Positions 11,671-19,893 of a stretch of 64,000 nt of DNA are shown here, piece by piece (positions within the stretch are counted from its first letter, which is position 1; each line of letters starts with the position of its first letter). Where the stretch lies: the NCBI RefSeq assembly GCF_018139145.2, contig NW_026114224.1:434001-498000 (forward strand), in the 5' to 3' direction. The translations under genes and the position numbers were made by a program. The DNA is from Gymnogyps californianus. Taxonomy: Eukaryota; Chordata; Aves; Accipitriformes; Cathartidae. The notes under the pieces are model-generated. The model made no database searches, had not been told where the DNA came from, and worked only from the letters and a program-made list of their open reading frames with translations.

Positions 11671-11877
11671 TTTTAGTTACTACGATAATAGGAGTAGTGC
11701 ATTTTTCTGTTAACACTTACAGGGCTTTCACTACAACTGCCCTGTTCAGGGACTGGGAATATTCAGGTGCCTTGGAAAACTACCAGCCAGATGATGATTG
11801 TTCAAGCCTTGTTCCCCTTGCTAGAAAACACTTCATTTTTAAATACATCCTTGCATGGGCAAGATCCAGGCAATCGG

Positions 11878-12141
11878 TGTGGGTAACTAGGGTCTGGCGG
11901 CCGGAAGATATCGCGCTGTACGGGAAATAGGGCCCCTCTCCGGATAGCCAATCGTGTTTAGCCTATGACGTAAGCAGACGGAAGTGATGCTGTAAACCCA
12001 AGCTATATAATGTCGTGCTATCTACTAATAAACGCCATTTGCCGTCCGCCACATTGGTGTCTGTGAGCAGATGGCCCGAGCGGCCTAGGGTTGGTCGCCG
12101 TGCCGTTCCTGAACCAGGTCGCCATGCCAACGAAGGCAACA
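11878..12141 (+). promoter_or_regulatory. 5' LTR (264 bp)
   Basis: Begins TGTGGG and ends AACA. It contains CCAAT (11948-11952), a CRE-like TGACGTAA (11966-11973), a TATA box TATATAA (12004-12010) and AATAAA (12027-12032). With transcription starting about 25-30 bp after the TATA box, the poly(A) signal falls just before or at the U3/R border. It would then be mostly absent from the 5' end of the transcript and present only at the 3' end. The start site is inferred. Confidence 0.9.
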
Positions 12142-12143
12142 AG

Positions 12144-12161
12144 TGGTGCCGAAACCCGGGA
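12144..12161 (+). other. primer-binding site matching tRNA-Phe
   Basis: TGGTGCCGAAACCCGGGA, two bases after the LTR. It is the complement of the 3' 18 nt of vertebrate tRNA-Phe (acceptor stem starting GCCGAAA). Exogenous alpharetroviruses use tRNA-Trp, so this is a distinguishing trait. Confidence 0.9.
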
Positions 12162-12243
12162 AATTCGCCTGGAATCGGGTGAACGGCGGCCGGAGCGGCA
12201 GGTCCAGCCCAGCGGGGAGGACGCTCCCGGACCAACAAGGAGG

Positions 12244-14394
12244 ATGGAAGCCCTTGTGAAGGTCGTATCACAATTACATAAGCAGTGGGGTATTGATTGT
12301 AAACCCAAAGATTTTACTCTCGCTGTTGCGAGGCTTTTGCAAATTAAGGTCATTGACCAGCCGGTGGATATTCTCCACCCTGAAGTGTGGGATAAGTGCA
12401 CAAAAGCGTTAGCCGAGGAGACAATGTCCTCGGGTTGTGGGAAAAACCTTAAATCGTGGGGGAAAGTCGTACAGGCCCTGCAGAAGGCCATACAAGAGCA
12501 GGAGACCTGGATGGCGGCGAGGGACTGTTTGTTGGTCACCCCGAAAGTGGGAATCGGGGCAGCCACACAGACTTTGCACCCCCCAGACAATGACGTTTCT
12601 GCTAAGCCCAAAGATCTGCAAGAAGGTGACACGTCCCCTCAATCCCTGAACCCCGACCCGCTTACGGAGGGACAGAAACGAGCTAAATCCTTCTGGGGTG
12701 GGTTAGCCGAAGAGGCCAGGGGTGCTGCGGAAAAATCGGAGTCTGGGGAAACCGGGGTTAGACCACCGCCATATGCGCCTCAAAATGGCGCTGAGCACAA
12801 AGGGGAAAGGCGGAGCGAAGATGCCTTTGTCGGGAGCGGGGAGGAAGCGCTAGCACTAATAAGCACACGCCAATGGGAAGGAGAGGGGAACGTGAGCGAA
12901 GGGCGGGAAGCCAATCAGAAGAACTGCCCTCACAAGGTAAACACCCCGCCGAACAGAAGGCGGGGCGGACCAAGCAGGCGAGATGAACCAAAAGGGAGGG
13001 AATGGCCCGCCCGCAAGGGGAGCGGGTGGGGCCGGAACCCGACAAAAAAGTACCGGAAACCGGAAGTAACCAGTCAGTCGAGTTCCGGCTCCGGATCAGA
13101 CACTAGCTGGGACGAGTGGCTCGCAGCCGATTCAAACTCAGAGGAAGGAGACATGGAGATAAACAAAGCTAAGAACCAAAACATCCCCGTTCAAATTAAA
13201 GAGGAATCGCGAGGAGAAATCCCTCTCACGGACTGGAGGAAAATAAAGATTGCGTGCGCCGATTGGGCCCCATCGGCCGCGCTAGCGTTCCCGGTCCGGG
13301 TGACGGATGGGGGACAGAGGGTCCACTCGCCAATAAACCCCAAGGACATACAAGCGATTGTTAAGGCGATCGCGGATAAAGGCCTCAATTCTGCCATGGT
13401 CTCCACCCTCATAGATGGTGTCTTTGGGGGAGACGATATGCTCCCGTTCGATATAAAACAAACTTGTAGACTGCTCTTTGACGGAGCAGGAATGATCGTT
13501 TTTAAACAAGAATGGGAGGATAACTGCGCAAGGCAACTGGCCCAAGTAGCTGGAGCGGATCATCCACTGCATGGCTCCAGCCTGCAGCGGTTAATGGGCA
13601 CAGATCCCGTAATGATTACCCCCCAGGCGCAAGCACAGGGCCTGCGAGCCCATGAAGTTATGGCAACTACTCGTGCGGCCAGAGAAGCTATCCGCACAGC
13701 TTCTAGAGTTGTCGCCAAGCCATCGCCATGGTCCACAATAAAACAAAGTGAAAGTGAGAGCTTTACACAATTTGTAGATCGTCTCCAAGCAGCGGTCGAC
13801 TCCTCGGCCCTGCCGGCGGAGGCAAAAGGCCCGGTCGTAGCAGAGTGTTTACGTCAGCAGTGTAATTCGACAACCAAAGAAATTCTGCGATCACTACCGG
13901 TGGGATCAAGCATCGCGGACATGATTAAACATGTCGTAAAGGAAGAGCATCTAGCTCCGATTCAAGCGGCTGTCTGTACCGCAATAGCTAACGTGATGGC
14001 ATGTTTCAAATGTGGCCAGGTGGGCCACCTTGCGACAAACTGCCCTCGATCGGGGGACCTACCAACAGCGCTTCCCCCGCGCCAGAACCGACCCAGAGGA
14101 ACGTGTTGGGCCTGTGGTAAGAAAGGACATTTTGCTAAGGACTGTAGATCTAAAACTCAGGGAAACGGGAGGGGGAGAGGGCACCTGGGCCGCGCACAGC
14201 CCTCTCCCACTTGGGACGTGAGGCGGCCCAATTATGCCAATCCCGGATGGGGCGAAGCACTCCCGAACCCGCTGCCCCCTCGAGCAGCGACCACCTTTAT
14301 GGTTCCACCGACGACCCAGCCGAACCTGTCCCCACCTCAGGAACGGCAAGGACCACCCCTTGGAGGCGAGACCCCAGGGTGGCCCTGGCAGTAA
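12244..14394 (+). CDS. gag: ERV Gag polyprotein (alpharetrovirus-like)
   Basis: 716 residues, uninterrupted. I chose the ATG at 12244 because the following MEALVKVVSQ matches the N-terminus of alpharetroviral matrix; an earlier in-frame ATG (12124) lies in the LTR. Matrix-like sequence comes first. A late-domain PPPY is at residues 174-177, within a long polar, Gly/Ser/Lys-rich region. The capsid follows, with a major homology region near 501-520 (Q, E, F and R in the usual spacing). Two CCHC zinc knuckles lie at 587-600 and 621-634. The stop at 14392-14394 overlaps pro by 229 nt in a different frame. It assembles virus particles and packages RNA. With no frame lesion it could still be translated, but expression is unknown. 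Confidence 0.95.
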   Translation: MEALVKVVSQLHKQWGIDCKPKDFTLAVARLLQIKVIDQPVDILHPEVWDKCTKALAEETMSSGCGKNLKSWGKVVQALQKAIQEQETWMAARDCLLVTPKVGIGAATQTLHPPDNDVSAKPKDLQEGDTSPQSLNPDPLTEGQKRAKSFWGGLAEEARGAAEKSESGETGVRPPPYAPQNGAEHKGERRSEDAFVGSGEEALALISTRQWEGEGNVSEGREANQKNCPHKVNTPPNRRRGGPSRRDEPKGREWPARKGSGWGRNPTKKYRKPEVTSQSSSGSGSDTSWDEWLAADSNSEEGDMEINKAKNQNIPVQIKEESRGEIPLTDWRKIKIACADWAPSAALAFPVRVTDGGQRVHSPINPKDIQAIVKAIADKGLNSAMVSTLIDGVFGGDDMLPFDIKQTCRLLFDGAGMIVFKQEWEDNCARQLAQVAGADHPLHGSSLQRLMGTDPVMITPQAQAQGLRAHEVMATTRAAREAIRTASRVVAKPSPWSTIKQSESESFTQFVDRLQAAVDSSALPAEAKGPVVAECLRQQCNSTTKEILRSLPVGSSIADMIKHVVKEEHLAPIQAAVCTAIANVMACFKCGQVGHLATNCPRSGDLPTALPPRQNRPRGTCWACGKKGHFAKDCRSKTQGNGRGRGHLGRAQPSPTWDVRRPNYANPGWGEALPNPLPPRAATTFMVPPTTQPNLSPPQERQGPPLGGETPGWPWQ
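14160..14208 (+). promoter_or_regulatory. gag-pro -1 frameshift signal
   Basis: A GGGAAAC heptamer at 14160-14166 lies in gag frame as G GGA AAC, right after the zinc-knuckle codons. Six bases later a perfect 10-bp GC-rich stem forms between 14173-14182 and 14199-14208 with a 16-nt loop. Slippery site, spacing and stem all fit a functional -1 site. The pro frame is open from 14166. GGGAAAC is a known gag-pro site of betaretroviruses, whereas in avian sarcoma/leukosis viruses pro lies in the gag frame. Confidence 0.9.
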
Positions 14395-14741
14395 AATGCG
14401 ATAATCCGCCAGTGGTGTGTGGGATCTGTTCCCTCTACAATACCTTAAACGGCACCACCATTAGTGTCCCCTTTTTGATCGATACCGGAGCAGATGTTAC
14501 AGTTATCCCTGAAACAAACTGGCCCCCGTGTTGGAAATTAGAAAACGCCCCCTTGGTGGGTGGAGTCGGGGGATTAACCCAGGCTCGGAAGAGTGCTCAA
14601 TTAGTAGCAATCACGCTTCACACTGAAAAAGGACCAGAGAAAACCATCACCCTCTTTCCATATGTCATGTCAGGAGTCCCACCCCTGTTGGGAAGGGACG
14701 CTCTAACCCTATTAAAAGCCAGGGTGACAAATTTACCGTAA
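14166..14741 (+). CDS. pro: ERV aspartic protease (pro)
   Basis: 191 codons, read by -1 frameshift from gag and ending in TAA at 14739-14741. The catalytic DTGAD block is at 14481-14495, preceded by FLI and followed by VTVIP. The C-terminal LLGRDAL block typical of retropepsins is near 14687-14707. The region before about 14380 overlaps gag and is Pro/Ser-rich; it is probably a linker removed by cleavage. No dUTPase domain is seen, unlike many betaretroviral pro frames. The enzyme cleaves Gag and Gag-Pro-Pol. Having its own frame in an otherwise alpharetrovirus-like backbone is a mixed trait. Confidence 0.92.
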   Translation, partial: REGERAPGPRTALSHLGREAAQLCQSRMGRSTPEPAAPSSSDHLYGSTDDPAEPVPTSGTARTTPWRRDPRVALAVKCDNPPVVCGICSLYNTLNGTTISVPFLIDTGADVTVIPETNWPPCWKLENAPLVGGVGGLTQARKSAQLVAITLHTEKGPEKTITLFPYVMSGVPPLLGRDALTLLKARVTNLP

Positions 14742-14821
14742 GGGCCACTGCCGTACACCCACTTCCACCAATTAAACTGACATGGAAATCGTCCGACCCA
14801 GTGTGGGTCGAGCAGTGGCCC
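14729..14821 (+). promoter_or_regulatory. pro-pol -1 frameshift signal
   Basis: AAATTTA at 14729-14735 lies in pro frame as A AAT TTA and is followed by CCG and the pro stop. Six bases after the heptamer a 10-bp stem can form between 14742-14751 and 14812-14821, enclosing 60 nt. AAATTTA followed by a long stem enclosing a large loop is the arrangement at the avian sarcoma/leukosis virus frameshift, where the loop joins a pseudoknot. The pol frame is open across the whole element. Confidence 0.92.
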
Positions 14822-17338
14822 CTGTCGAAGCCTCGAATGAATGCCCTTCTCGAGATAATTGACCGCGAACTACAACGAGGTCATATAGAACCTTCCACTA
14901 GCCCATGGAACACCCCAGTTTTTGTAATACCCAAACGAACCGGCGAGGGGTTCCGCCTCCTCCACGACCTGCGTGAAGTAAATAAGAGGATTCAACCAAT
15001 GGGTCCCGTCCAAACGATGTTACCCATGAACTCTATGATACCGGAAGGGCAACCTTGTGCTGTCCTTGATATTAAAGACTGTTTTTTCTCGATACCTCTG
15101 CATGATGAGGACAAGGAGCGGTTTGCTTTTTCTGTTGTGTTTCCAAACAGCCAACGCCCCAACTTACGTTTCCAGTGGAAGGTGCTGCCTCAAGGAATGA
15201 TTAACTCGCCTACTATCTGCCAAATTGCGGTGGATCGGGCGTTGACACCGGTCCGGCGCAGTGATCCGACCGCGACCATCATTCAATACATGGACGATAT
15301 CTTAATCGCCGCGCCGTCGGGAAGTCAGGTGGACCAGCTAGTGTCAACAGTCTCGGAAATTCTGAAAACAAACGGGTTCGAAATCGCGAGCACGAAAATT
15401 AAAAAAGGACCTTGTGTAAGCTTTTTAGGAGTAGGGATCACAAGTTCTTACATAACCCCTCCCCAAATAAAAATCCGTCGACACATCAAAACGCTCCATG
15501 ATATGCAACAGTTAGTGGGGTCCTTACAATGGCTCTGCAACATTGTCCTGATCCCTCCTGAAGTCATGGCCCCCCTGTACGATCTTCTAAAAGGAAAAAA
15601 CCCATGGGAACAAAAAACTCTGATGACAGAAGCAACGGACTCTCTTAATTTTATCGAGCAACAGGTATCATCAAGCACGCTCGCCAGATGGAACCCAAAT
15701 TTACCACTCGATCTGTATGTACATTTCACGGAGGGGGGAGGAGTAGGGGCACTAGCCCAGGGGCCCCCTGACAAAGCTCAACCGATACAATGGGTAGTCC
15801 TGGGAAAACTGTCACGTGCATTTTCTCCAGGAATCGAGTGCCTTGGCAACCTCATTATGAAAGGCAGAAAACTCGCCCTGAGACATCTGGGAATCGAACC
15901 CGCCAGGATATACCTACCCTTCCGCAAGCAACTCCCAACGCAATCAGTGGCGATGTCAGAGCATTTAGCCATAGCTCTCACTGGATTTGGCGGAGAAGTC
16001 CGGTATGCTACAAAACCCCCCTGGACTCAAACGCTGACAATCGTCGACATCGACCTCCCACGGAAGATCATGGATCGGCCCCAACGGGGACCAACAGTCT
16101 TCACAGATGCATCCTCAACAACCTCAACCGCGGTGGCAGTGTGGCAGTCGGGCGGAGAATGGCACTGCATTAAAATGACCGATTATGCGCTTTCGGTCCA
16201 GCAGTTAGAAGCGATGGCCGTAGTACTGGCGTGTGGACTGTTCCCAACGGAACACCTCAACATAGTAACCGACTCAATGTTCATGGCCAAGCTTTGCTTA
16301 GCCATGTCAGGGCCCGGCGTGTCAACATCCACAGCAGCGCTCATACTAGAAGAAGCGCTTTTCTCCCGAAAGGGCACCGTATCGGTCATCCACGTCAACA
16401 GCCACGACCCAATCAAAGGGTTTTTCCAAACCGGCAACGACAAAGCAGATGCCGCTGCAAAAGGGCTGTGGACGCTAAGAGATGCCCGCCAGCTACATGA
16501 GTCTCTTCACATCGGAACTAAAGCGCTAGCAAAGAAATGCAGGGTCTCAATCACTGACGCAAAACACATAGTAGCCACGTGCCCCCACTGTCAGAAAGCA
16601 CCACTGTGGTCCAGTGGAGTCAACCCCAGAGGCCTTAAGGCCTCCGAAGTGTGGCAGACGGATTTCACGCTCTGTCAGTTACTGAAACCTCGAGCATGGC
16701 TAGCAGTAACCGTAGATACATATAGCGGAGTGATCGTAGCCACACAACACCTTAAAACCAGCTCCAAAGCGACCATCCAACACTGGTTGACGGTCATGGC
16801 CTGGCTTGGCGTCCCTAATCAGATCAAAACAGACAACGGTCCGAACTTCACTTCTAAATCCGTCCAGGCATTTGTTTTGAAATGGGGCATCACCCTGATA
16901 CATGGCATTCCATATAATAGCACAGGACAAGCTATAGTTGAACGAGCAAATCAAACTCTGAAATCTAAATTAGAGGTGTTGGCAAAAACAGAAGGTTTTG
17001 CCAACGCCGTTCCCCCGGGAGACCAAGCACGCCTGCTAGCGACCGCTCTTTTAGCGCTAAACCAGTTCCCTAGGGGAGAAGAGAGTAATAGCCCCACCCA
17101 AAAACATTGGGCCACTCGAGCACTAGAAGAAGGCCCATTAATTATAATCAAAAATGAGCTGGGAGAATGGGAGCGAGGGTGGAGGCTAGTCCTGACAGGG
17201 CGAGGATATGCCGCTGTCAGAAAAGATGGCAAAGTTAAGTGGTGTCCGCTTAAATCTATTAAACCGGACCTCCAGAATAAAACTAATGAAAACTGTGAGT
17301 TTTTCTCCACAGGACCAGATTATCGGACGCCCTCGTAA
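14735..17338 (+). CDS. pol: ERV Pol: reverse transcriptase, RNase H, integrase
   Basis: 867 codons after the frameshift, uninterrupted to TAA at 17336-17338. The RT active-site YMDD is at residues 185-188 (15287-15298), preceded by the LPQGM block. RNase H shows D458 in TDAS, then glutamate in QQLEAMA, aspartate in VTDS and aspartate in NDKAD, the full catalytic set. Integrase has an HHCC zinc site (H-x3-H near 587, then CPHC) and the D,D-35-E triad at D643, D700 and E736, with exactly 35 residues between the last two. Its closest look is alpharetroviral. It copies the RNA genome and inserts the DNA. Its last about 50 bp overlap the possible env start. Confidence 0.95.
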   Translation, partial: TVRATAVHPLPPIKLTWKSSDPVWVEQWPLSKPRMNALLEIIDRELQRGHIEPSTSPWNTPVFVIPKRTGEGFRLLHDLREVNKRIQPMGPVQTMLPMNSMIPEGQPCAVLDIKDCFFSIPLHDEDKERFAFSVVFPNSQRPNLRFQWKVLPQGMINSPTICQIAVDRALTPVRRSDPTATIIQYMDDILIAAPSGSQVDQLVSTVSEILKTNGFEIASTKIKKGPCVSFLGVGITSSYITPPQIKIRRHIKTLHDMQQLVGSLQWLCNIVLIPPEVMAPLYDLLKGKNPWEQKTLMTEATDSLNFIEQQVSSSTLARWNPNLPLDLYVHFTEGGGVGALAQGPPDKAQPIQWVVLGKLSRAFSPGIECLGNLIMKGRKLALRHLGIEPARIYLPFRKQLPTQSVAMSEHLAIALTGFGGEVRYATKPPWTQTLTIVDIDLPRKIMDRPQRGPTVFTDASSTTSTAVAVWQSGGEWHCIKMTDYALSVQQLEAMAVVLACGLFPTEHLNIVTDSMFMAKLCLAMSGPGVSTSTAALILEEALFSRKGTVSVIHVNSHDPIKGFFQTGNDKADAAAKGLWTLRDARQLHESLHIGTKALAKKCRVSITDAKHIVATCPHCQKAPLWSSGVNPRGLKASEVWQTDFTLCQLLKPRAWLAVTVDTYSGVIVATQHLKTSSKATIQHWLTVMAWLGVPNQIKTDNGPNFTSKSVQAFVLKWGITLIHGIPYNSTGQAIVERANQTLKSKLEVLAKTEGFANAVPPGDQARLLATALLALNQFPRGEESNSPTQKHWATRALEEGPLIIIKNELGEWERGWRLVLTGRGYAAVRKDGKVKWCPLKSIKPDLQNKTNENCEFFSTGPDYRTPS

Positions 17339-19241
17339 CCCGTATGGCCCAGTGATAAGAAAGGATGACAAACCGACGAACATCCCAACTGCACCTGGGA
17401 GTTCAGCGTTGGCGCAATCTGATCAACGGCGAGATAGCCCCCGTGGGGGGCGGCTACGACACCTTTGTGTCATCTTGATTTCAGGGCTTGTCATCATAAG
17501 ACAGGTAGGATCAGAGCACCATCCCCATCAGCCATTCAGATGGATCCTACTAGACCCTACACGCGAGGATACAGTGATCATGGAAAACACTACTGCAGGT
17601 GCCCCGACTTTTACAATAACAATTGGCGACTTATTCCCCACGGTCGGAGGACCTAAATCCAAATCATTATGGGGAACATACTGGTGCCCCAATTCAAACC
17701 CTGGAATGAGTTATTGCCATTATCCAGGATACGGGTTTTGTGGATATTGGGGATGTGAGACCATTGTAACAAGTGATAGGTGGAAGCCAAAGAAAAATGA
17801 CGAATTTTTGCGGGTGACATGGTGGCCAAAAAAGTGTTCACATCCAAAATTTGCGAGCGACGGAATGGTGTATTAAAAAGGTACTTGCACCCATTTGAAT
17901 TTAGAAATCCTACAACCGACCAACATGGGTTGGACTGTGGGAAAATTTTGGTCAGTATTCATTCACAAAGCTTTTACAGATATGGGAACAGTGATACAAA
18001 TTATTAGGCTCCCACCGCAAACACCCCAAGCAATCGGGCCAAACCTAGTTCTTAACCCACGCATGCCCACACCCACACAAATCTCTACATCCACACAAAC
18101 ATCTACACCCTTACTACATGATGCCACAACCAATACCGCGCTTACAAATAATGCCGCCCCCGCAGCGACACGCACCACCAAAATTCCCGACGGAAATCCT
18201 CTCTGGAAAATGATGCAAGCCAGCTACCGCGCGTTGAACAAAACTAACCCAAATCTTACGGAGCACTGTTGGCTATGCTACGGAATAAAACCACCCTTCT
18301 ATGAAGCTGTAGGAGTAAGTGACCCACCCATACGGTCGAATGATCCAAATCCGGCCCAGTGTATATGGGGCATAGAAAAGCAGGGAATTACATTAGCGCA
18401 TGTGGCGGGAAGTGGCGTGTGTATAGGCAACGTCCCAAGGCACAAAGAACGACTCTGTATCGATAAGACACAAGATAAAACCCCTGCAAAATGGTTAATA
18501 CCGGCCAACAACACCAAGTGGGTTTGTTCTATCATGGGAGTTACACCCTGTTTGTCGCTAACGAACTTTGATGAATCCTCAGAATATTGTGTCCAGGTAT
18601 CTATAGTCCCTAAAATCTTTTACCATTCCGAAGACTTTGTCTACGATTCACAGATTACCCCAGAACATCATCTGTCAAAACGAGAACCCTTTACAGCACT
18701 GACAATAGCTACTCTAATGATCATGGGAGGTGCGGGAATAGGTACAGGAGTAGCGTCCTTGGTACATCAGAGTAAAGAATTTAGTGCCTTGAGGATGGCA
18801 GTAGATGAAGACCTGGCTAGAATTGAACAATCCATAAGCGCATTAGAAACATCAATCAGATCATTATCCGAAGTAGTGTTACAAAATCGAAGGGGATTAG
18901 ACCTGATGTTCTTGCAACAAGGGGGGGTATGTGCTGCATTAAGAGAAGAGTGTTGTGTATATGCAGACCACACCGGAATAGTTAGAGACACTATGGCCAA
19001 ACTGCGGGAAGGATTGGAAAAACGGAAAAGGGAACGAGAAGCACAACAAAGTTGGTTTGCATCATGGTTTAACCATTCTCCATGGCTGACTACCCTGATC
19101 TCTACCTTGGCAGGACCAGTCGCGATGGTCCTAATAGCATTGATCTTCGGACCCTGCATATTAAATAGGCTCGTGTCGTTTGTTAGGAGCCGGCTTGATA
19201 AGGTTAACATCATGTTGATAGAACGCCAACAACTGCTTTAA
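17286..19241 (+). pseudogene. env: ERV env, gammaretroviral type, one in-frame stop
   Basis: One frame runs from 17208 through 19241 with a single stop, TAA at 17874-17876. SU contains a GYWGCE block near 17740 and a CWLC motif at 18267-18278, the disulfide-isomerase-like site of gammaretroviral SU. A basic cleavage site (LSKR) ends at 18683, then a fusion peptide rich in Ala/Gly/Ile. The immunosuppressive-domain region is followed by an intact CX6CC at 18930-18956. A membrane anchor lies near 19083-19165 with a tail of about 25 residues. The start is uncertain: a splice acceptor (TTTTTCTCCACAG) ends at 17312, and the only ATG before the hydrophobic leader in this frame lies upstream of it. 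A second frame starting at ATG 17366 stops before the leader's end, which hints at a further frame lesion. Confidence 0.88.
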
Positions 19242-19623: not shown

Positions 19624-19887
19624 TGTGGGCAACTAGGGTCTGGCGGCTGGAAGATATCGCGCTGTACGGGAAATAGGGCCCCTCTCCGGATAGCCAATCG
19701 TGTTTAGCCTATGACGTAAGCAGACGGAAGTGATGCTGTAAACCCAAGCTATATAATGTCGTGCTATCTACTAATAAACGCCATTTGCCGTCCGCCACAT
19801 TGGTGTCTGTGAGCAGATGGCCCGAGCGGCCTAGGGTTGGTCGCCGTGCCGTTCCTGAACCAGGTCGCCACGCCAACGAAGGCAACA
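19624..19887 (+). promoter_or_regulatory. 3' LTR (264 bp)
   Basis: Same length as the 5' LTR, differing at three sites: near the start (T to C), in the GGCCGG/GGCTGG position, and near the 3' end (ATGCC/ACGCC). TATA box at 19750-19756 and AATAAA at 19773-19778. The AATCGG target duplicate follows. Confidence 0.95.
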
Positions 19888-19893
19888 AATCGG

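What the first reader, a model, noticed from the sequence alone, without database searches (positions are those of the whole stretch)
14160..14821. Two stacked -1 frameshift signals, one beta-like and one alpha-like, each with a 6-nt spacer and a 10-bp stem
GGGAAAC (14160-14166) plus stem 14173-14182/14199-14208 leads from gag to pro. AAATTTA (14729-14735) plus stem 14742-14751/14812-14821 leads from pro to pol. Both heptamers are in the correct zero frame, and both downstream frames are open from the slip point. Avian sarcoma/leukosis viruses need only the second. So the element has a betaretrovirus-like layout with the alpharetroviral pro-pol signal retained. It implies Gag, Gag-Pro and Gag-Pro-Pol products, as in betaretroviruses.
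Basis: partly seen in the sequence, partly recalled or inferred. Interest (0 to 1): 0.85.

Follow-up and report, generated by a model that had tools for sequence, protein, structure and literature searches.

The report
Double frameshift in bird endogenous retrovirus
An old retrovirus copy in a bird genome carries two well-formed ribosome-slip signals that split its genes into three overlapping frames, as in mammalian betaretroviruses, although its proteins resemble chicken leukosis viruses; this mixed layout was largely noticed before, and the RNA details are a modest addition.

Summary
Of 521 canonical heptamers in the window (both strands) only these two have a 9-bp or longer stem at a 4-9 nt spacer. 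Among 17 copies found in the genome, the site-1 stem is paired in 17 of 17, GGGAAAC kept in 16 of 17, AAATTTA in 16 of 16 reaching it. The gag/pro split is not an indel artefact: 10 of 16 copies show it unbroken, and relatives keep each overlapping frame.

Additions: site 1 can form an H-type pseudoknot (second stem 14186-14193/14223-14230), its inner pairs better kept than its outermost; one stem-1 pair (14178-14203) covaries, inferred through codons.

The element fits published TgERV-F: CA, PR and IN nearest Rous sarcoma virus, gamma-type Env, no dUTPase. [quoted passage not shown] Here 13 of 24 beta-like loci also have GGGAAAC in the gag-to-pro frame. Frameshifting itself was not measured.

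The parts
11872..11877 (+). target-site duplication AATCGG, left copy (right copy 19888-19893)
11878..12141 (+). 5' LTR, 264 bp, 3 differences from the 3' LTR
12144..12161 (+). primer-binding site; fits tRNA-Phe by recall, host tRNA gene not found here
   Evidence: read; searches did not confirm the tRNA
12067..14394 (+). gag open frame (MA, p24 CA, two CCHC zinc knuckles; probable start ATG inside)
14160..14166 (+). gag-pro slippery heptamer GGGAAAC
14173..14182 (+). site 1 stem 1, 5' arm
14199..14208 (+). site 1 stem 1, 3' arm
14186..14193 (+). site 1 proposed pseudoknot stem 2, 5' arm (inner part better kept than outermost pair)
14223..14230 (+). site 1 proposed pseudoknot stem 2, 3' arm
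14154..14741 (+). pro open frame: about 78-codon overlap with gag, then protease; no dUTPase match
14167..14394 (+). dual-coding gag/pro overlap
14729..14735 (+). pro-pol slippery heptamer AAATTTA
14742..14751 (+). site 2 stem, 5' arm
14812..14821 (+). site 2 stem, 3' arm (in pol codes part of a QWPL stretch)
14627..17338 (+). pol open frame (RT with YMDD, RNase H, integrase)
17196..19241 (+). env reading frame, interrupted by one stop; the piece after the stop matches TLV_coat
19624..19887 (+). 3' LTR

Best explanation
The region is the gag-pro-pol junction of an endogenous retrovirus of the TgERV-F kind, a relative of alpharetroviruses. It has two programmed -1 frameshift sites in series. 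A minority of ribosomes slip on GGGAAAC, stimulated by a 10-bp stem that can be the first stem of a pseudoknot, and enter pro. A minority of those slip on AAATTTA before a large stem-loop and enter pol. The inferred products are Gag, Gag-Pro and Gag-Pro-Pol. Shown: sites, frames, conservation, coding in both overlapping frames. Inferred: slippage, its efficiency, the pseudoknot, the products.
For: Two of 521 heptamers meet the heptamer-plus-stem criterion, both in the required frame. Stem 1 paired in 17 of 17 copies; site-2 stem paired throughout in 14 of 16, one of these with a G-U. Heptamers 16 of 17 and 16 of 16. 10 of 16 copies spanning both sites have no frame-changing indel. 28 pro-frame relatives at 50-91% identity and 26 Gag-piece relatives, some from named birds; both frames kept across the overlap in the 5 and 9 proteins compared. 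Stem-1 pairs possible in 59 of 60 cells from 6 pro-frame rows (window plus 5) and 159 of 160 cells from 16 gag-frame rows (window plus 15); pair 14178-14203 must be G-C in 2 of 6 pro-frame rows and is A or C with T in 4 of 6. An 8-bp stem 2 is reached in 8 of 2000 shuffles. Capsid is nearest RSV capsid, protease nearest RSV/MAV among single-copy chains, integrase nearest avian sarcoma/RSV integrases. A sub-threshold match to Rfam RSV_RNA lies downstream (65.2 bits, cut-off 105).
Against: No measurement of frameshifting. Own-genome copies are too alike: 91 of 799 sites vary, so an unchanged 20-nt stem has roughly a 1 in 11 chance (my arithmetic). Stem 2 has one or two broken pairs in 7 of 17 copies, and its outermost pair is impossible in 11 of 16 gag-frame rows. 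The covarying pair rests on 2 proteins of unnamed contigs and could be one event; P0025 breaks pair 14181-14200 and P0037 pair 14177-14204. For stem 1, registers shifted by +2 (pro set) or +3 (gag set) do almost as well (58 of 60; 158 of 160). No site-2 pseudoknot beyond chance (202 of 500 shuffles). RT is nearest chain 7sr6, named 'Polymerase' (HERV-K RT by recall), with no row named RSV among the 60 shown of 198.
Confidence: 0.88

Rival explanations
1. The gag/pro frame difference is a decay artefact: an indel in one copy split an originally fused gag-pro frame, and GGGAAAC plus stem is coincidence.
For: Indels are common in dead copies (6 of 16 copies spanning both sites have frame-changing ones); one Zosterops gene model (P0060) has Gag tail and protease in one protein.
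Against: 10 of 16 copies spanning both sites show the same -1/-1 relation and the full-length pro frame is open in 10 copies. The Gag end GETPGWPWQ is shared by the window, a cuckoo protein (P0033, Phaenicophaeus) and 4 proteins of unnamed contigs.
Confidence: 0.03
2. Site 1 works with a plain 10-bp hairpin; the second stem is incidental.
For: Stem 2 is broken at one or two pairs in 7 of 17 copies, and its outer pair is not kept in 11 of 16 gag-frame rows. P0043 loses an inner pair.
Against: An 8-bp complement is rare in shuffles (8 of 2000). Pro-frame rows allow all 48 stem-2 cells, though this test is permissive; gag-frame rows allow 114 of 128 against 75-105 in shifted registers. Betaretroviral gag-pro sites with GGGAAAC are described as pseudoknots (PMC3835772, passages and table rows). 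Two of the three breaking changes lie in CpG and look like decay (inference).
Confidence: 0.35
3. The double-shift layout was gained secondarily, by recombination of an ALV-like gag-pro ancestor with a beta-like ERV, rather than retained from the class II ancestor.
For: Beta-like ERVs with the same heptamer coexist in this genome (13 of 24 loci); env of this family is itself described as recombinant (PMC10536682, passages).
Against: CA and PR on both sides of the junction are RSV-like, no dUTPase was found, and the sequence after the heptamer differs from that of the 4 beta-like loci printed.
Confidence: 0.2

Closest known systems
TgERV-F (Henzy et al. 2014, J Virol; not held, abstract recalled only)
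   Same: Alpha-like gag-pol with gamma-type env in birds (PMC10536682 passages; [quoted passage not shown] The PBS type implied by the name is recalled.
Avian leukosis / Rous sarcoma virus
   Same: AAATTTA heptamer before pol and a long downstream structure (PMC3835772 table rows); RSV-like CA, PR, IN.
   Different: ALV/RSV use a single frameshift (PMC3835772 passage) and gag and pro share one ORF (PMC10820513 passage); here gag-pro has its own shift. Env type differs too (TLV_coat match; avian gamma-type in alpharetroviruses per PMC3758190 passage).
Betaretroviruses (MPMV, SRV-1, JSRV, SMRV, HERV-K10)
   Same: GGGAAAC gag-pro site with pseudoknot and a second shift to pol (PMC3835772 passages and table rows).
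   Different: No dUTPase match in pro; stems longer (10 and up to 8 bp against 5-7 and 6-7), and 5 nt between the stems against 0-1.
Chicken alpha and alpha-beta ERVs (Jern 2005, PMC1224870)
   Same: Reported '-1/-1' pattern: gag-pro -1 in 4 of 6 scored alpha and 5 of 7 scored alpha-beta ERVs (sections 5 and 9 read).
   Different: That report scores frames by software and describes no slip sites or stems in the sections read.

Membership tests
Programmed -1 frameshift site | X XXY YYZ heptamer in the zero frame, spacer about 5-9 nt (recalled), stable downstream structure, open -1 frame | tested here: met
   for both sites; folding z -4.63 at site 2, only -1.66 for the site-1 hairpin piece
Programmed -1 frameshift site | Measured slippage | not testable with these tools
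   needs reporter or ribosome profiling
TgERV-F | RSV-like gag-pol proteins with gamma-type Env in a bird | tested here: met
   RT does not discriminate; bird host inferred from names of relatives
TgERV-F | tRNA-Phe primer-binding site (recalled) | tested here: inconclusive
   PBS read; no matching host tRNA gene found
TgERV-F | Sequence identity to the published element | not testable with these tools
   paper not held
Alpharetrovirus (ALV/RSV type) | gag and pro in one frame | tested here: not met
Alpharetrovirus (ALV/RSV type) | AAATTTA slip site before pol with downstream stem | tested here: met
   comparison PMC3835772
Betaretrovirus | gag, pro, pol in three frames linked by two -1 shifts | tested here: met
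   layout and sites; slippage itself not measured
Betaretrovirus | dUTPase in pro (and G-patch in mammalian members) | tested here: not met
   only RVP in pro; contrast, dUTPase in 2 of 2 beta-like pro ORFs tested

The most novel reading that the evidence does not exclude
Alpharetroviruses descend from a class II virus with two -1 frameshifts, and elements like this one keep that state; the ALV/RSV line later lost the gag-pro shift and so came to make protease in equal amount to Gag. A Zosterops relative (P0060), whose predicted protein runs from the Gag tail into the protease and does not fit GGGAAAC (GGGAAAA is not excluded), may be an independent case of the same loss.
Probability: 0.45. 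Interest if true: 0.5.

Novelty: new member of a known kind. Interest (0 to 1): 0.36.

Why it matters
RSV is unusual in making protease at the same level as Gag (recalled). A related lineage with protease behind its own frameshift suggests that the Gag:protease ratio changed within this part of the retroviral tree, and gives short RNA elements with which that change can be studied.

Tried and rejected
Decay-indel origin of the frame split: rejected on copies and relatives. Covariation from own-genome copies: none seen, they are too alike. Codon-position test of the overlap: variable sites are flat (10/9/10) against skewed in pro alone (12/3/22), which fits dual coding but also neutrality. Compensation at 14192-14224 in P0042 (A-U for G-C) was set aside because both changes could be CpG decay. 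Site-2 pseudoknot: nothing above chance. Two viral-contig scans found no relatives. tRNA-Phe confirmation failed. Eight paper searches: Henzy 2014 is not held, so I cannot say whether it already describes these two sites.

Rows dropped: of the 28 proteins, 5 reach through the stem-1 region in the pro frame and were used in the pair test; the rest start further down or, like P0011 and P0028, read another frame there. Of the 26, 14 were used, plus P0060; 12 were not (P0045 out of frame, P0049 left out at the redo, the others partial or not examined). One search's gag set contained only 2 of 17 intended rows because of alignment gaps and was redone. Of the 30 distant protease hits, 25 were read. 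One search misaligned the minus-strand copies and was redone.

Full report
Element. The finding lies in an LTR-bounded provirus: 264-bp LTRs at 11878-12141 and 19624-19887 with 3 differences, and a 6-bp duplication AATCGG on both sides. gag (12067-14394), pro (14154-14741) and pol (14627-17338) are open; env has one internal stop. Pfam finds Retro_M, p24 and two zinc knuckles in gag, only a retroviral protease in pro, and RT, RNase H and integrase in pol. The env piece after the stop matches TLV_coat. The window lies in a 1.24-Gb assembly; the named relatives of its Gag piece are birds.

The two sites. I scanned all 521 canonical heptamers on both strands of the window for a Watson-Crick stem of at least 9 bp starting 4-9 nt downstream with a loop of at most 70 nt. 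Two were found: these two. Each is also the only canonical heptamer in its ORF overlap. Site 2 folds with z -4.63. That helix, 14186-14193 with 14223-14230, joins the loop of stem 1 to sequence beyond it, so both can form together as an H-type pseudoknot (stem 1 10 bp, stem 2 8 bp, single-stranded links of 3, 5 and 14 nt). Shuffled loop and flank reach 8 pairs in 8 of 2000 trials.

Copies in the genome. The DNA search found 17 copies including the window, one of them partial. GGGAAAC is present in 16 of 17 (one GGGAAAT, a change in a CpG), AAATTTA in 16 of 16 that extend to it. Stem 1 has 10 of 10 pairs in 17 of 17 (two copies, L024 and L025, lack one G of a run at the spacer-stem border). Stem 2 has all 8 pairs in 10 of 17, counting L018, which carries a 3-nt insertion in the 5' arm. 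The site-2 stem is paired throughout in 14 of 16, once with a G-U. Ten of 16 copies spanning both sites carry no frame-changing indel between 14102 and 14900. Some copies look like near-duplicates (L002/L003, L024/L025), so these are not independent counts. With 91 variable sites in 799, an unchanged 20-nt stem is not by itself significant.

Relatives elsewhere. A protein search with the pro frame gave 28 relatives at 50-91% identity. One with a Gag piece gave 26, some named from birds. Those named birds whose proteins reach past the slip point are Phaenicophaeus (P0033), Haemorhous (P0038), Prinia (P0040), Turdus (P0042, P0043) and, diverging soon after, Strix (P0049). Across the overlap the pro frame is kept at 29 of 78 to 56 of 73 residues (5 proteins, all of unnamed contigs) and the gag frame at 40 of 77 to 66 of 77 (9 proteins). 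The Gag end GETPGWPWQ recurs in P0032, P0033, P0034, P0041 and P0046. So both frames are real and the split is not confined to this genome.

Covariation through codons. Stem-1 pairs are possible in 59 of 60 cells of 6 pro-frame rows and 159 of 160 cells of 16 gag-frame rows; shifted registers give 40-58 and 113-158, so some shifted registers come close. At 14178-14203, P0010 and P0025 must have G and C, while P0002, P0004, P0005 and P0012 have A or C and T (the window itself A-U). This is a compensatory change that alters the protein in the pro frame, but it rests on two unnamed contigs. For stem 2, all 48 pro-frame cells (a permissive test) and 114 of 128 gag-frame cells are possible, against 75-105 in shifted gag registers; 11 of the 14 failures are the outermost pair. 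The inner part is therefore the better-supported pseudoknot stem.

Neighbouring families. I read 25 of the 30 more distant protease hits; 24 have a protease motif. In 13 of these 24 a GGGAAAC sits with its zero frame in the zinc-knuckle frame and its -1 frame in the protease frame; in 3 of the 13 (L052, L053, L060) a stop lies between heptamer and the protease ORF. Eight of 24 carry a site-2-like 5' arm GGG[C/T]CACTG, and 6 have GGATTTT at the pro end. Two of two pro ORFs tested carry dUTPase. The gag-pro site is thus a common class II trait in this genome, and a stem arm like that of the 'alpha-like' pro-pol site occurs beyond alpharetrovirus-like elements. The 3' arm encodes part of a QWPL stretch in pol, so part of its conservation may be protein-driven.

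Affiliation. Integrase: best chain 7jn3 279 bits (RSV by recall), the chain named RSV integrase 1c0m 216, best other 3jca 140 (MMTV by recall). Capsid scores 89 with RSV p27 against 44 for HERV-K. Protease scores 50-51 with 1bai, 1mvp and 2rsp (MAV and RSV); only 203-residue tandem HIV dimers score more, up to 62, by matching twice. RT is nearest chain 7sr6 and does not discriminate. A sub-threshold Rfam match to RSV_RNA lies at 14841-15132 (65.2 bits, cut-off 105); it lies within pol coding sequence and many of its pairs are broken.

Prior knowledge. PMC3835772 (passages and table rows) gives one shift for alpharetroviruses and two for betaretroviruses, GGGAAAC for several betaretroviruses and AAATTTA for ALV/RSV. 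PMC1224870 (passages, and sections 5 and 9) reports a '-1/-1' pattern in intermediate beta-like chicken and reptile ERVs and, deviating from expectation, in chicken alpha ERVs. [quoted passage not shown] PMC10536682 (passages) describes TgERV-F. The original TgERV-F paper was not held, so whether it prints these two sites is unknown to me.

Verdict. A conserved double -1 frameshift layout in a known kind of bird ERV. The details added here are the likely pseudoknot, one inferred compensatory pair, and the spread of the gag-pro site through class II ERVs of the same genome. Slippage itself remains to be measured.

Noticed in passing
window 14841-15132: Sub-threshold Rfam match to RSV_RNA, the Rous sarcoma virus RNA stability element (65.2 bits, cut-off 105, E 4.4e-17), just after the pro-pol junction; many pairs broken, so probably sequence kinship in pol.
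   Followed up: no
P0060 (Zosterops borbonicus protein, no window coordinates): A relative whose Gag tail and protease are in one predicted protein and whose residues do not fit GGGAAAC; possible loss of the gag-pro shift, or a gene-model join.
   Followed up: partly
G000 loci L034, L036, L037, L044, L047, L049, L062, L063: Beta-like ERVs of the same genome carry a stem arm GGG[C/T]CACTG much like the one at this element's pro-pol site; six of them have a GGATTTT heptamer at the pro end.
   Followed up: partly
window 17196-19241: Gamma-type env reading frame with a CX6CC motif (seen by eye) and one internal stop.
   Followed up: no
G000:C80 22272-23072 and 34241-35041: Two very similar copies of the element about 12 kb apart on one contig, each 99% identical to the window copy over the 801-base query; may be a duplication.
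   Followed up: no
G000 contigs C362, C536, C272, C281: Further exact matches to the primer-site complement with no Rfam or tRNA match; possibly other copies lacking the pro region.
   Followed up: no
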